NCBI GenBank assembly: GCA_015058265.1
Contig: SVCR01000138.1
Location: 1 to 5,342, forward strand
DNA: 5,342 bases
Direction of reading: 5' to 3'
Source: Clostridiales bacterium
Lineage (GTDB): Bacteria > Bacillota_A > Clostridia > Peptostreptococcales > Anaerovoracaceae
The notes beneath the pieces are model-generated. The model was not told the origin of the DNA, searched no databases, and saw nothing but the letters and a program-made list of their open reading frames with translations. Both the position numbers and the translations under genes were made by a program. This document shows, one piece after another, positions 1,301 to 5,342 of this stretch; position 1 is the stretch's first letter, and every line of letters starts with the position of its first letter.

Positions 1301-1368
1301 GAAGCGATTTGTTCTGTAGATTATACACAATTTTGATCTTATAATTTGTATTTTCACAACAAAAAGCA

Positions 1369-1397
1369 TTGACACATAATCTTCACAATGTTATTAT
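1369..1397 (+). promoter_or_regulatory. Strong sigma-A type promoter of the liv leader and operon
   Basis: TTGACA (1369-1374, perfect -35) is followed after exactly 17 bases by TATTAT (1392-1397, one mismatch to TATAAT). Transcription would start near 1404, giving a leader of about 266 bases before livJ at 1670. It is the best promoter in the window and lies upstream of the leader peptide and attenuator, so regulation by premature termination is plausible. A nearby TATAAT at 1340-1345 lacks a good -35. Confidence 0.85.
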
Positions 1398-1429
1398 ACG
1401 CAATGTAGTTAGTACAAAAGGAGATCAAT

Positions 1430-1516
1430 ATGTTTTCAGCAACAAGTTCCATTCTTATTAGCATTATCGGCGTCCTTCTAGTCATTAGACTGGATGTGGA
1501 CGGATTTATGCTGTAG
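1430..1516 (+). CDS. Branched-chain amino acid leader peptide (28 aa)
   Basis: A 28-codon ORF, ATG at 1430 and TAG at 1514-1516, with an excellent Shine-Dalgarno AAAAGGAG (1416-1423) six bases upstream. It starts about 26 bases into the predicted transcript. Of its 28 residues 13 are branched-chain: five Ile, five Leu and three Val. They are concentrated in residues 8-19, ILISIIGVLLVI, where only Ser11 and Gly14 are not Ile, Leu or Val. Four of the five Ile codons are ATT, whereas livJ downstream uses ATC for 13 of its 15 Ile, so codon choice differs from the structural gene. The ORF is followed at once by competing antiterminator and terminator structures and then by a branched-chain amino acid transporter operon. 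This is the layout of a ribosome-stalling leader peptide whose translation, not its product, is the signal. A less likely alternative is a tiny single-span membrane protein, since residues 7-19 are hydrophobic. Confidence 0.85.
   Translation: MFSATSSILISIIGVLLVIRLDVDGFML
1466..1505 (+). promoter_or_regulatory. Leader hairpin over the Ile/Leu/Val codons (pause-type)
   Basis: Bases 1477-1483 pair with 1488-1494 (seven pairs including one U-G, ATTA loop). After a small internal loop, 1471-1475 pair with 1498-1502 (CGTCC with GGACG). Three more pairs are possible between 1466-1468 and 1503-1505. The stem covers the core of the regulatory codons, where an RNA polymerase pause hairpin would sit in a classical attenuator and where a translating ribosome would melt it. 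It does not overlap the antiterminator arm at 1510-1519, so any role in preventing antitermination without translation is unclear. Paired by eye. Confidence 0.5.
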
Positions 1517-1570
1517 GGCGGAACGAGCGTGAGATCGAATTGATCAGAATCAGGCTTGCAGGCCCGCAGC
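1510..1570 (+). promoter_or_regulatory. Predicted antiterminator pairing of the liv attenuator
   Basis: Bases 1510-1519 (GCTGTAGGGC) pair with 1562-1570 (GCCCGCAGC): nine pairs including one U-G, with a single bulged A at 1515. The right arm contains the whole 5' arm of the terminator (1562-1568), so the two structures cannot coexist. The left arm spans the last codons and the TAG stop of the leader peptide. A ribosome at the stop codon would cover it, while one stalled at the upstream Ile/Leu/Val codons would leave it free. This is the geometry expected for amino-acid-dependent attenuation. The pairing is visible in the sequence; the mechanism is inferred. Confidence 0.7.
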
Positions 1571-1588
1571 AATGCGGGCTTTACTTAT
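1560..1588 (+). terminator. Intrinsic terminator (attenuator) upstream of livJ
   Basis: The stem is GCCCGCA (1562-1568) with TGCGGGC (1573-1579), seven perfect pairs closed by a GCAA GNRA-type tetraloop. It can be extended by G1561-U1580 and A1560-U1581. It is followed by TTTACTTAT, with six T in nine, a moderate U-tract. It lies about 90 bases before livJ and 45 bases after the leader stop codon, so it would cut the transcript before the transporter genes. A GCCCG at 1589-1593 could also pair with CGGGC at 1575-1579 and weaken it. The remaining leader, 1594-1669, shows only the livJ ribosome binding site and no other convincing structure. Confidence 0.8.
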
Positions 1589-1669
1589 GCCCGGCAACCT
1601 ATTGGTAACTTATCAACTATTACTCCAGTCAACCGCAATTGAATCTTAGGTATTAGAAGGAGAAGAATT

Positions 1670-2857
1670 ATGAAGAACAAGAAATGGACTAAACTCTTAG
1701 TAGTGGCTCTGTCCTGCATGATGGTCTTTGCTATGACAGCATGCGGCGGCGGATCAAGTGAAGGCGGCGAAGAGGCTGCAGCAGGTGCAGGCACTCTCCA
1801 CCTCGGCGGCGTTGGCCCACTCACAGGACCGGCAGCTCTTTACGGAAATGCTGTTAAGAACGGAGCACAGCTCGCAGTTGACGAGATCAACGCAGCTAAT
1901 CCGGACGGCGTTCAGCTCGCATGGGATATGCAGGATGACGAGCACGATGCTGAGAAATCAGTAAACGCTTATAACAAGCTGGTAGATGACGGAATGCAGA
2001 TCCTGGTAGGAACCGTTACATCCGCTCCTTGTACAGCAGTAGCAGCAGAAGCATTTGCAAACAGAACATTCGCTCTGACACCATCCGCTTCAGCACCGGC
2101 TGTAACAGAAGGAAACGACAACGTATTCCAGCTCTGCTTCTCCGACCCTAACCAGGGAATCGCTTCCGCTGACTACATTGCCAAGAACTATCCGGATGCT
2201 ACTGTTGGCGTAATCTACAACAATGCTGATAACTACTCAACAGGTATCTATGATAAGTTCAAATCAGAATATGAAGGCGCAGGAAAGAAAATTGCTGCTG
2301 CAGAGGCATTCTCTGATGATGCTAACGCTGACTTCACAGCTCAGCTGAACAGCCTTAAGGATGCAGGCGTTGACCTGATCTTCCTGCCGATCTACTACAC
2401 ACCGGCTTCCAACATCATGACTCAGGCTAACAAGATGGGATATGAGCCAACATACTTCGGCGTTGACGGCATGGACGGAATCCTTGACCTTGAAGGATTC
2501 GACACATCCCTTGCAGAGGGCGTTCTGCTCCTGACTCCGTTCACACCTTACTCAGATGATGCTAAGGTTCAGGAATTCGTAAAGGCTTACGAAGATGCAT
2601 ACGGCGAGACTCCGATCCAGTTCGCAGCTGACGCTTATGACTGCGTATATGCTGTATATGACGCATTCCAGAAGACAGGTCTCGGTACAGATGCAAGCAT
2701 GGAAGATATCTGCGAAGCAATGATCCAGGTATTCACAGGCGGAGACTTCACAGCTTCCGGACTTACTGCTGAGACAATGACATGGAATGAAGCAGGCGAA
2801 GTTGATAAGACTCCTAAGGTCTGCGTAATCGAGGACGGCAAGTACGTTGAGAAATAG
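1670..2857 (+). CDS. livJ: Branched-chain amino acid ABC transporter substrate-binding lipoprotein
   Basis: A 395-residue extracytoplasmic solute-binding protein of the Leu/Ile/Val-binding family (Peripla_BP_6 type I fold). The N-terminus is a lipoprotein signal: basic MKNKK, a hydrophobic core, and the lipobox MTAC with Cys25 as the lipidated residue. A Gly/Ser/Glu/Ala-rich linker (26-41) then leads to the mature domain. Family hallmarks follow: GPLTGPAALYG (49-59), LAVDEINA (68-75), GTVTSAP, TPSASAPAVTEGNDNVFQ, and the second-lobe start YPDATVGVIYNN. The protein would capture branched-chain amino acids outside the membrane and deliver them to LivH/LivM. Related receptors bind other amino acids or amides, but the Ile/Leu/Val-rich leader upstream supports the branched-chain assignment. 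The start is fixed by AGAAGGAG at 1655-1662, seven bases before the ATG. Its strong site and first position suit the high level usual for binding proteins. Confidence 0.95.
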   Translation: MKNKKWTKLLVVALSCMMVFAMTACGGGSSEGGEEAAAGAGTLHLGGVGPLTGPAALYGNAVKNGAQLAVDEINAANPDGVQLAWDMQDDEHDAEKSVNAYNKLVDDGMQILVGTVTSAPCTAVAAEAFANRTFALTPSASAPAVTEGNDNVFQLCFSDPNQGIASADYIAKNYPDATVGVIYNNADNYSTGIYDKFKSEYEGAGKKIAAAEAFSDDANADFTAQLNSLKDAGVDLIFLPIYYTPASNIMTQANKMGYEPTYFGVDGMDGILDLEGFDTSLAEGVLLLTPFTPYSDDAKVQEFVKAYEDAYGETPIQFAADAYDCVYAVYDAFQKTGLGTDASMEDICEAMIQVFTGGDFTASGLTAETMTWNEAGEVDKTPKVCVIEDGKYVEK

Positions 2858-2957: not shown

Positions 2958-3842
2958 ATGAGCTTTTTAAACAGTTTGATATCGGGTCTGAGCCTCGGAA
3001 GCGTATATGCTATCATAGCTCTCGGATATACCATGGTATACGGAATATCCAAGATGCTTAACTTCGCTCACGGTGACGTTATCATGGTCGGAGGGTATGT
3101 TTCTTTCATCCTGACGATGTACGTCGGCATGAACGGATGGATAGCTCTGCTCATTGCTATGGCAGCATGCACACTGCTGGGTATTTTGATCGAAAGACTC
3201 GCATACAGGCCTCTCAGGGGGACAGGTTCTCTAGCTGTACTGATCACTGCTATCGGTGTTTCATACTTCCTTCAGAACGCTGCTCTGTTGATATGGGGCG
3301 CGAATCCAAGGGTTTTCACAAGCCTGTTCCACGGCATGAATACTATCCATGCAGGAGGCGGACAGCTTACGATAACTCCTGAGTCGCTTTTTACTATCGT
3401 CGCTAATATCATAATCATGATAGCGCTCACACTTTTCGTAGGAAAGACCAAAGCCGGAAAGGCTATGCGTGCCGTATCGGAGGATAACGGCGCAGCACAG
3501 CTGATGGGCATCAATGTCAACCAGTCCATATCTCTGACATTTGCTATCGGTTCAGGCCTTGCCGCTGTTGCAGGAGTACTGATGTGCTCAGCTTATCCGG
3601 TACTGATGCCGACTACAGGTGCTATGCCGGGAATCAAAGCGTTTACTGCAGCTGTATTCGGCGGGATCGGGTCCATACCTGGTGCAATGATCGGAGGTCT
3701 GATACTCGGTATCATTGAGATCATGTCAAGAGCGTATATTTCGACGGAATTATCAGATGCCATTGTTTTCGCATGCCTGATCATAGTTCTTCTGGTCAAG
3801 CCGACAGGCCTGCTCGGGAAGAAGATCAACGAGAAAGTGTAG
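2958..3842 (+). CDS. livH: Branched-chain amino acid ABC transporter permease LivH
   Basis: A 294-residue integral membrane protein, full length for LivH, with about eight hydrophobic segments. Diagnostic stretches are ALGYTMVYGISKMLNFAHGD near the N-terminus (about residues 21-40), LIERLAYRPLRG (around 76-87), and the cytoplasmic coupling region GKAMRAVSEDNGAAQLMGIN from residue 167, which should contact the ATPase subunits. GIKAFTAAVFGGIGSIPGAMIGG near the C-terminus is also typical. With LivM it forms the transmembrane channel for branched-chain amino acids. The start ATG follows AAGGA (2946-2950) at a seven-base spacing, and it lies about 100 bases after livJ, beyond the intercistronic hairpin. 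It depends on the promoter upstream of the leader, since no separate promoter is evident. Confidence 0.96.
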   Translation: MSFLNSLISGLSLGSVYAIIALGYTMVYGISKMLNFAHGDVIMVGGYVSFILTMYVGMNGWIALLIAMAACTLLGILIERLAYRPLRGTGSLAVLITAIGVSYFLQNAALLIWGANPRVFTSLFHGMNTIHAGGGQLTITPESLFTIVANIIIMIALTLFVGKTKAGKAMRAVSEDNGAAQLMGINVNQSISLTFAIGSGLAAVAGVLMCSAYPVLMPTTGAMPGIKAFTAAVFGGIGSIPGAMIGGLILGIIEIMSRAYISTELSDAIVFACLIIVLLVKPTGLLGKKINEKV

Positions 3843-3849
3843 GTGAGCC

Positions 3850-4983
3850 ATGGCAGACAGATTATTTAAATCGATCAAGACCAGAGGTCTCAAAGGCGCA
3901 GTAAAGGGCAGCGAGTACAGAAAAGAGGCAATGATAGCCTATGGCATTCTGATCGTAGGGTATATCCTTCTTCAGCTTGGTGCCATGACCGGAATCATCG
4001 GAAGAAACCTGCAGGGGCAGTTCGTTCCGATCTGTGTATATGTATCTCTGGCGATATCCCTCAACCTCGTAGTAGGAATATCCGGCGAGCTCTCACTCGG
4101 ACATGCAGGTTTCATGGCGGTCGGAGCATTTACAGGTATTCTTGTAACAAGAGTTCTTGAGCCGAGCATTTCGTTCGGGCCTCTGAGACTGATAATTGCT
4201 CTGCTGGCTGCAGCCTTGATGGCAAGTATAGCCGGATTCATTATCGGGATACCTATTCTCGGTCTGCGAGGCGACTATCTTGCGATTGTTACATTGGCGT
4301 TCGGCGAGATCGTAAGGAATTTCATGAATGTCCTGTACTTTGGCTTCGATGCTGACGGAAAACTGAGATTTGCCTTCAATCACACCATCGAAGGCGTTGA
4401 TAATGCAGGGAGGATCATCACCGGAGCTATCGGAGCTACCGGAGTTACTAAACTCGCGACGTTTACATCTGCTATTCTGGTCACCGCTTTTACCCTCTTT
4501 GTGGTTCTCAATCTCAAGAACTCCAAGCAGGGAAGAGCTATCATGGCGATCAGAGACAACAGGATCGCAGGAGAATCAATAGGGCTGAATGTCAAGAAGT
4601 ATAAGCTCATGGCATTCGTCATCAGTGCTGCTCTTGCCGGCATGGCAGGCTGCATGTTCGGTCAGAACTACAGTACTCTGGCTCCTGTCAAATTCAACTT
4701 CAACACATCAGTACTCATTCTGGTATTCGTTGTACTCGGCGGTATCGGTAACATCTGGGGCGGAATGATAGCTGCAGCTCTTCTGACTGTGCTTCCGGAA
4801 GCTCTCAGACAGTTTGCTGATTACAGAATGCTGACTTATGCAGTAGTACTTATCGTAGTAATGATCTGCACTTATAATCCTACGATCAAGGCAAGAGTCG
4901 GAATGATCACCGATAAGTTCAAACGCAATAAGAAAGATGACGGCAAGAAGCGAGCCGGAAAAGCCGGAAAGGGGGTGGCATAG
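3850..4983 (+). CDS. livM: Branched-chain amino acid ABC transporter permease LivM
   Basis: A 377-residue polytopic membrane protein, the second permease of the complex. Family motifs in order: LNLVVGISGELSLGHAGFMA from about residue 70, GIPILGLRGDYLAIVTLAFGE near 133-153, the ATPase-coupling segment GRAIMAIRDNRIAGESIGLN from residue 228, and VVLGGIGNIWGGMIAAALLT near the C-terminus. A hydrophilic N-terminus of about 27 residues precedes the first membrane segment. The protein ends in a strongly basic tail: residues 356-377 contain ten Lys/Arg and only two Asp. It starts seven bases after the livH stop. AGGTGAG (3841-3847) overlaps that stop but sits only two bases from the ATG, an unusually tight spacing, so translational coupling to livH is likely. 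The next in-frame ATG, codon 28, is a possible but less favoured start. Confidence 0.95.
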   Translation: MADRLFKSIKTRGLKGAVKGSEYRKEAMIAYGILIVGYILLQLGAMTGIIGRNLQGQFVPICVYVSLAISLNLVVGISGELSLGHAGFMAVGAFTGILVTRVLEPSISFGPLRLIIALLAAALMASIAGFIIGIPILGLRGDYLAIVTLAFGEIVRNFMNVLYFGFDADGKLRFAFNHTIEGVDNAGRIITGAIGATGVTKLATFTSAILVTAFTLFVVLNLKNSKQGRAIMAIRDNRIAGESIGLNVKKYKLMAFVISAALAGMAGCMFGQNYSTLAPVKFNFNTSVLILVFVVLGGIGNIWGGMIAAALLTVLPEALRQFADYRMLTYAVVLIVVMICTYNPTIKARVGMITDKFKRNKKDDGKKRAGKAGKGVA

Positions 4984-5342
4984 ATGGCAGAGAAAAAAGA
5001 TCTGCGTGATGACATCCTTGAAATGGAAACAACTGATACCGGTCATGCCTATGAAAACAGACAGGAGATCTACTACAACGACAACGTTGGAGGAAGAGCT
5101 GTATTCGTAGATGCTAAGGAGCATTACTCTCCTGATGAGCCGACAGTTACAGAGACTATTCTCCAGGACAGAGATAAGGACAAGACCCCTATCCTCGAGG
5201 TCAAGGGACTTGGTATTGATTTCGGAGGACTTACTGCGGTAGATGATTTCAGCATCGCTATAGGAAGGACCGAGATCGCAGGACTTATCGGACCTAACGG
5301 AGCCGGCAAGACTACGATCTTCAACATGCTCACTAAAGTATA
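4984..5342 (+). CDS. livG: Branched-chain amino acid ABC transporter ATPase LivG, 5' part, with N-terminal extension
   Basis: The first 119 codons of the ATP-binding subunit that powers LivH/LivM; the gene runs off the window. The ABC domain begins at about residue 69 (PILEVKGLGIDFGGLTAVDDF), the usual LivG start, and reaches the Walker A motif GPNGAGKTT at residues 103-111. The signature motif, Walker B and H-loop lie beyond the edge. The first 68 or so residues are an extra, hydrophilic, acidic segment (18 Asp/Glu against 9 Lys/Arg) not present in ordinary LivG proteins. It is not an annotation artefact of start choice: between Met14 and the Walker A motif there is no in-frame ATG, GTG or TTG. 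The ATG directly abuts the livM stop, with GGGGGTGG (4971-4978) five bases upstream, indicating tight coupling. Confidence 0.93.
   Translation, partial: MAEKKDLRDDILEMETTDTGHAYENRQEIYYNDNVGGRAVFVDAKEHYSPDEPTVTETILQDRDKDKTPILEVKGLGIDFGGLTAVDDFSIAIGRTEIAGLIGPNGAGKTTIFNMLTKV

What the first reader, a model, noticed from the sequence alone, without database searches (positions are those of the whole stretch)
1404..1588. Leader-peptide transcription attenuator controlling a branched-chain amino acid uptake operon
A strong promoter, a 28-codon ORF with a good ribosome binding site and 13 Ile/Leu/Val codons, a hairpin over those codons, an antiterminator arm containing the stop codon, and a GC-rich terminator occur in the right order in under 200 bases ahead of livJ. 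The antiterminator (1510-1519 with 1562-1570) and terminator (1562-1568 with 1573-1579) are mutually exclusive. Ribosome position decides which forms: stalling at codons 8-21 leaves 1510-1519 free, and reaching TAG masks it. Translational attenuators of this kind are classical for enterobacterial ilv and leu biosynthesis operons. In clostridial-type bacteria branched-chain amino acid genes are usually under T-box or CodY control, and here the target is a transporter. I do not know of a description of this leader.
Basis: partly seen in the sequence, partly recalled or inferred. Interest (0 to 1): 0.85.

Follow-up and report, generated by a model that had tools for sequence, protein, structure and literature searches.

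The report
Leader-peptide switch on amino-acid importer
A tiny gene rich in isoleucine, leucine and valine codons sits between the promoter and a branched-chain amino acid importer, and the RNA folds around it are conserved in relatives, so it most likely works as a ribosome-operated on/off switch of the classical kind, here on an uptake operon of a clostridial bacterium.

Summary
At 1369-1588 lie a promoter, a 28-codon ORF with 13 Ile/Leu/Val codons, and four RNA segments that can form three mutually exclusive helices: protector (1453-1464/1508-1518), antiterminator (1509-1519/1562-1571) and terminator (1560-1568/1573-1581). Folding the growing transcript gives them in the order a classical ribosome-mediated attenuator needs. 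Of 19 loci with a close livJ relative, 14 carry the leader. Of 56 livJ upstream regions scored in the surrounding family, 44 have a BCAA-rich leader ORF plus hairpin: 35 by script, 9 by eye. Leader peptides differ widely between lineages while the architecture stays. It is a new member of a known kind: such attenuators are known on ilv-leu biosynthesis operons; my searches found none described on a LIV-type importer. Against it: 5 of 19 close relatives lack the leader; the U-tract is poor; at equilibrium the finished transcript favours the terminator even with a stalled ribosome, so switching must be co-transcriptional; some covariation measures do not beat their controls. The idea that it stands in for CodY fits close relatives only.

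The parts
1369..1397 (+). Promoter, TTGACA-17-TATTAT; start of transcription predicted near 1404
   Evidence: 11 of 12 matches; kept in the aligned rows that reach it
1418..1423 (+). Ribosome binding site AAGGAG of the leader ORF
   Evidence: read from sequence; GGAG invariant in the 15 rows
1430..1516 (+). Leader peptide ORF, 28 codons, 13 Ile/Leu/Val, stop TAG at 1514-1516
1453..1464 (+). Segment 1, 5' arm of the protector helix, lies on Ile codons
   Evidence: (inner six pairs counted)
1471..1502 (+). Inner (pause-type) hairpin inside the protector
1508..1519 (+). Segment 2: pairs with segment 1 (protector) or segment 3 (antiterminator); holds the stop codon
1560..1571 (+). Segment 3: pairs with segment 2 (antiterminator) or segment 4 (terminator)
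1573..1588 (+). Segment 4 (1573-1581) and short U-rich tail: intrinsic terminator
   Evidence: tail poor, not listed
1607..1630 (+). Conserved stretch after the terminator, function unknown
   Evidence: seen by eye
1670..2857 (+). livJ-like substrate-binding protein of a branched-chain amino acid ABC importer
2958..3842 (+). livH-like permease
3850..4983 (+). livM-like permease
4984..5340 (+). ABC ATPase, by position livG-like, runs off the window
   Evidence: ABC_tran

Best explanation
It is a ribosome-mediated transcription attenuator of the four-segment (trp/ilv) type that adjusts expression of a livJHM(G) importer to the supply of charged Ile/Leu/Val tRNA. With ample BCAA the ribosome runs to the UAG at 1514-1516 and covers segment 2; segment 3 is left to pair with segment 4, and RNA polymerase stops near 1585. 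When Ile, Leu or Val is short, a ribosome stalls on codons in or before segment 1 (about codons 8-13), which keeps segment 1 from pairing with segment 2; segment 2 then captures segment 3 before segment 4 is made, and polymerase reads into livJ. Without translation, segment 1 hides segment 2 and the terminator forms. Shown by computation: the parts, their conservation and their mutually exclusive folding. Inferred: transcription start, translation, stalling, termination and the BCAA response.
For: Order and exclusivity: with no ribosome the protector has probability 0.87-0.97 from 1520 to 1566; with a ribosome over codons 8-10 or 11-13 the antiterminator is 1.0 at 1572-1576; with a ribosome at the stop, or none, the terminator is 1.0 at 1580-1588. 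Conservation: 14 of 19 close livJ loci. On 37 aligned leaders the antiterminator keeps 91.3% of cells paired (slid controls 29-56%), the terminator 97.6% (19-44%), the inner six protector pairs plus inner hairpin 85.9% (33-61%), with 3, 3 and 10 pairs changed on both sides. In 22 of 35 family leaders at most 10 of 200 shuffles of the stop region match segment 3 as well as the real one. Fourteen leaders that I picked, 12 before livJ and 2 before other genes, each have their own complementary segment 2 and segment 3. Codons 7-21 are conserved as peptide (pN/pS 0.49), the tail is not (1.23). The target is a BCAA-importer-like operon; weak model hits in other genomes precede ilvB and a class III aminotransferase.
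Against: At equilibrium the full transcript prefers the terminator even with a stalled ribosome (0.85-0.97 at 1588; 0.99 with 1460-1492 masked), so the switch needs co-transcriptional trapping. With no ribosome the transcript passes at 1572 through an antiterminator-favoured state (0.88). The U-tract is poor and one search did not list the terminator. Five of 19 close relatives lack the leader, and 12 of 56 family regions. For the antiterminator, pairs changed on both sides (54 of 500 shuffles as high) and further pair types (153 of 500) do not clearly exceed shuffles, and slid versions show as many or more pairs changed on both sides (up to 5 against 3); further pair types also fail for the terminator (440 of 500) and protector (109 of 500). 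Relatedness inflates the other shuffle controls. In 13 of 35 family leaders the segment 2/segment 3 match is beaten or equalled by 12 to 177 of 200 shuffles (L151 177, L136 64, L158 56, L152 41). No expression data.
Confidence: 0.88

Rival explanations
1. The ORF encodes a small functional membrane peptide (28 aa, hydrophobic core) made with the importer; the hairpin is an ordinary partial terminator.
For: The hydrophobic core is conserved (pN/pS 0.49 over codons 7-21), and runs of Ile/Leu/Val look like a transmembrane segment.
Against: The C-terminal quarter is not conserved as protein (pN/pS 1.23). Peptides at the same place in other lineages share little beyond I/L/V richness, and some are about 50-70 aa long. 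It does not predict that the stop-codon region pairs with the terminator arm.
Confidence: 0.05
2. A riboswitch, T-box or protein-binding leader senses BCAA or another ligand directly, and the ORF is incidental.
For: Terminator/antiterminator switching is shared with these classes.
Against: No Rfam match up to E 5 in the window, none at gathering cut-offs in 40 related sources, mostly regions where I had seen no main-type leader. T-box-like hits in 10 of 14 close relatives are below the cut-off and 17 of 19 stand before thrS-like or trpB-like genes. SD and ATG are invariant in 15 aligned leaders, whose length changes inside the ORF keep the frame.
Confidence: 0.04
3. A constitutive partial terminator that simply lowers livJ transcription; the leader is a remnant.
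For: L004 and L005 keep a promoter and a hairpin with no leader ORF, so a bare hairpin can stand before livJ.
Against: Segment 2 and the protector would not need to stay complementary, nor would leaders of different sequence each have a matched segment 2.
Confidence: 0.03

Closest known systems
ilv-leu leader-peptide attenuators of Gram-positives: S. aureus ilvD leader (PMC5794164) and Listeria Rli60 (PMC5864092); passages of both seen
   Same: Short BCAA-rich leader ORF, terminator hairpin and alternative antiterminator before a BCAA operon; ribosome-mediated model with mutant support there
   Different: Those control biosynthesis; here the target is a LIV-type ABC importer in a clostridium. 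In S. aureus the described antiterminator pairs the U-tract and leaves the terminator stem intact; here segment 3 is shared
Enterobacterial ilvGMEDA, ilvBN and leuABCD attenuators (as described in the review PMC6123439; passages seen)
   Same: BCAA-codon-rich leader of 28-32 aa, terminator against antiterminator
   Different: Biosynthesis operons in another phylum; no sequence relation tested
Corynebacterium ilvBNC leader (PMC10272879, PMC11857589; search listing and start of abstract only)
   Same: uORF or attenuator before a BCAA operon
   Different: Biosynthesis operon, another phylum
lysQ permease leader of Lactococcus lactis and hisZ leader of C. difficile (mentioned in PMC4833913; passages seen)
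   Same: Precedents for attenuation on a transporter gene and for it in a clostridium
   Different: Other amino acids; predictions that involve RNA triplexes

Membership tests
Ribosome-mediated (leader peptide) transcription attenuator | Short translated ORF rich in codons of the regulated amino acid between promoter and operon | tested here: met
   ORF, SD and I/L/V richness present and conserved; translation itself not tested
Ribosome-mediated (leader peptide) transcription attenuator | Intrinsic terminator between leader ORF and first gene | tested here: met
   Hairpin 1560-1581, 97.6% of cells paired in 37 leaders; U-tract poor, not listed; termination not tested
Ribosome-mediated (leader peptide) transcription attenuator | Antiterminator exclusive with the terminator, and protector exclusive with the antiterminator | tested here: met
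   some covariation measures do not beat controls
Ribosome-mediated (leader peptide) transcription attenuator | Regulated operon acts on the sensed amino acid | tested here: met
   livJ/livH/livM by Pfam and by NCBIfam matches that lie below the curated cut-offs; substrate not tested
Ribosome-mediated (leader peptide) transcription attenuator | Ribosome stalling and read-through change with amino acid supply | not testable with these tools
   no expression or ribosome data
T-box (RF00230) | Match to the T-box covariance model | tested here: not met
   none in the window up to E 5; none in 40 related sources
Any Rfam 15 family, amino-acid leader families included | Match up to E 5 | tested here: not met
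   0 matches in the window

The most novel reading that the evidence does not exclude
In this clostridial family ribosome-mediated attenuation is a main BCAA sensor for uptake (and now and then for ilvB and an aminotransferase), and leaders at one orthologous position have been replaced or re-invented several times, so that some seven or more peptide types with little shared sequence fill the same role before livJ. That would make livJ a natural series for watching leader-peptide attenuators arise and turn over.
Probability: 0.4. Interest if true: 0.6.

Novelty: new member of a known kind. Interest (0 to 1): 0.5.

Why it matters
It extends leader-peptide attenuation of branched-chain amino acid genes to an uptake operon in Clostridia, where T-box and CodY are the usual expectation, and gives a comparative structure, a covariance model and a list of orthologous loci for testing how such switches evolve. 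In 14 close relatives no CodY was detected, which makes an RNA-level BCAA sensor there more telling, although the wider family often has CodY.

Tried and rejected
Rfam gave nothing. Protein-based control was not pursued beyond CodY. That attenuation simply replaces CodY was not upheld for the family: CodY in 128 of 197 genomes, including some whose livJ has a leader (G121, G210, G053, G100), though in 0 of 14 close relatives. That ilvB is usually under the same control was not upheld: the detector fired at 3 of 40 ilvB upstream regions that I chose from the list, besides the 3 weak model hits (read); the 30 ilvB loci returned itself (L173-L202) were not scanned. Beyond the close relatives, of 47 loci from L016 to L070 scored only L029, L054 and L057 fired; that detector also missed L006 and L015, which carry the leader. 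Of the weak hits, L112 showed no leader on reading, and G286, G143 and G210 were not read; L088 looked spurious. Amino-acid changes at I/L/V positions stay I/L/V in 22 of 47 cases against 31% expected, a mild excess. (segment 3 pairs upstream in 42 of 42, terminator forms in 40 of 42, L118 and L151 failing) had no shuffled control, and in L012 and L113 not all of those pairs are with segment 2, so I give it little weight. In the tree the row G241 has a very long branch, probably because the script took a wrong frame, and G205 has no row, so the 11 changes of the leader-less label are rough. The protector count used its inner six pairs with 1459 in place of 1458, and not the outer five. The search was not set to best match; conservation of that stretch was judged by eye.

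Rows dropped before counts: of 66 livJ places listed I fetched 58 (the eight weakest were not fetched) and scored 56, leaving out L141 and L144 as too short. L058 has no livJ start and is not among the 19 close loci. One search dropped L140 as identical to L137; one search used the 22 main-group leaders of exactly 28 codons among 37 aligned.

Full report
OBSERVATION. The window reads: sortase-like gene, phosphoribosyltransferase, leader, livJ, livH, livM, start of an ABC ATPase gene. The leader ORF 1430-1516 has 13 Ile/Leu/Val in 28 codons and an AAGGAG six bases before the ATG. The promoter 1369-1397 matches 11 of 12 consensus positions, though the window has no more promoter-like sites than its shuffles. 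The leader folds far better than shuffles (z -4.1). The combination of SD, BCAA-rich ORF and following hairpin arose in 2 of 2000 shuffles of the region; a slightly stricter detector fired on 0 of 437 control gene starts and 12 of 62 livJ starts in the fetched loci.

CONSERVATION. A scan for livJ relatives gave 70 loci. Nineteen hold the start of a livJ at least 71% identical; 14 of the 19 carry the leader and 5 do not (L004, L005, L009, L013, L036). The covariance model R1, built from 14 leaders, gives 15 strong hits among 71 local sources; 14 of these are its own training rows. In whole genomes it hits 14 of the 19 source genomes, 33 of 296 genomes of the family (E up to 0.01) and 30 of 393 of the order (E up to 0.001; many are the same genomes). 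livJ itself is found in 65 of 292 family genomes. Of 66 places listed I fetched 58 upstream regions and scored 56: 35 have leader plus hairpin by script. By eye nine more do: L129, L130, L131 and L134, whose hairpin has a mismatch, and L142, L147, L154, L155 and L159. Twelve do not (L133, L135, L138, L156, L162, L164-L170). In L151 the hairpin that the script chose is doubtful.

STRUCTURE. On 37 distinct aligned leaders (A3) the antiterminator keeps 91.3% of cells paired, the terminator 97.6%, and the inner six protector pairs with the inner hairpin 85.9%; partners slid by 1-3 columns give 29-56%, 19-44% and 33-61%. Changes on both sides occur at 3, 3 and 10 pairs. These double-change counts are not uniformly convincing: for the antiterminator, 54 of 500 shuffles reach 3 and slid versions reach 5. 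I therefore rest more on the percentages paired and on leaders of different sequence. Fourteen such leaders, picked by me, each show a segment 2 complementary to their own segment 3. A shuffle test in the 35 script-found leaders gives at most 10 of 200 shuffles as good in 22, and 12 to 177 in 13.

MECHANISM. Folding the growing transcript: with no ribosome the protector dominates to 1566, the antiterminator is briefly favoured at 1572 (0.88), and the terminator wins from 1580. With a ribosome over codons 8-10 or 11-13 the antiterminator is complete at 1572-1576 and still 0.20 or 0.46 at 1580. With a ribosome at the stop it does not form at any step tried. This is the textbook order, but at 1588 the terminator is favoured in every state, so read-through depends on polymerase passing the weak U-tract before rearrangement. 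That step is inferred.

PEPTIDE OR RNA. In 22 main-group leaders of 28 codons pN/pS is 0.49 for codons 7-21 and 1.23 for codons 22-28: the tail that encodes the antiterminator arm is free as peptide while its pairing is kept. In the window four of five Ile codons are ATT, which makes up 17% of Ile codons in four neighbouring genes; this may reflect the protector helix rather than codon choice.

CONTEXT. Weak R1 hits precede acetolactate synthase genes (L108, L109, L111), and one at E 7.8e-11 precedes a class III aminotransferase (L102). A direct survey of 40 ilvB upstream regions found 3 leaders. CodY was not detected in 14 close relatives but was in 128 of 197 family genomes. T-box-like elements occur in 10 of 14 close relatives, all below the Rfam cut-off; of the 19 hits, 8 stand before genes that look by eye like thrS and 9 before trpB-like genes. 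On a livJ tree of 62 rows the leader-less label needs 11 changes, with the caveats under Tried and rejected; L004/L005, L009/L036 and L013 sit inside the 16-row main clade, so they look like losses.

LITERATURE. Searches. Passages seen: PMC6123439, PMC8632094, PMC5794164, PMC2965389, PMC4833913, PMC5864092. Ribosome-mediated attenuation of BCAA biosynthesis is established or predicted in several Gram-positives; leader control of a permease (lysQ) and in a clostridium (hisZ) has been predicted. I found no description of a leader-peptide attenuator on a LIV-type importer in these searches, which cover open-licence papers only.

VERDICT. Real, conserved, and most likely a ribosome-mediated attenuator of the importer operon (0.88). 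A new member of a known kind, with a new target and lineage.

Noticed in passing
window 1607-1630: A stretch resembling TATCAACTATCACTCAGTC just after the terminator recurs in many main-group loci and also in L004 and L005, which lack the leader ORF; function unknown.
   Followed up: partly
L004 and L005, upstream of livJ: A promoter followed almost at once by a strong hairpin with a good U-tract and no leader ORF, before a livJ 84% identical to the window's: a terminator without its sensor.
   Followed up: partly
L171 / L102 (G022:C156): A BCAA-rich leader with terminator and matching antiterminator precedes a class III aminotransferase; the same genome has another leader before livJ.
   Followed up: partly
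L108, L109, L111, L209, L218, L219: BCAA-rich leaders precede acetolactate synthase large-subunit genes in some family members.
   Followed up: partly
G188 (L128, L294): A main-type leader with an early stop stands before a livJ that groups with carriers of another leader type (support 85/54); possible exchange of leader or gene.
   Followed up: no
window 1351-1397: The promoter spacer and a repeated TTCACAA look conserved among close relatives, perhaps an operator.
   Followed up: no
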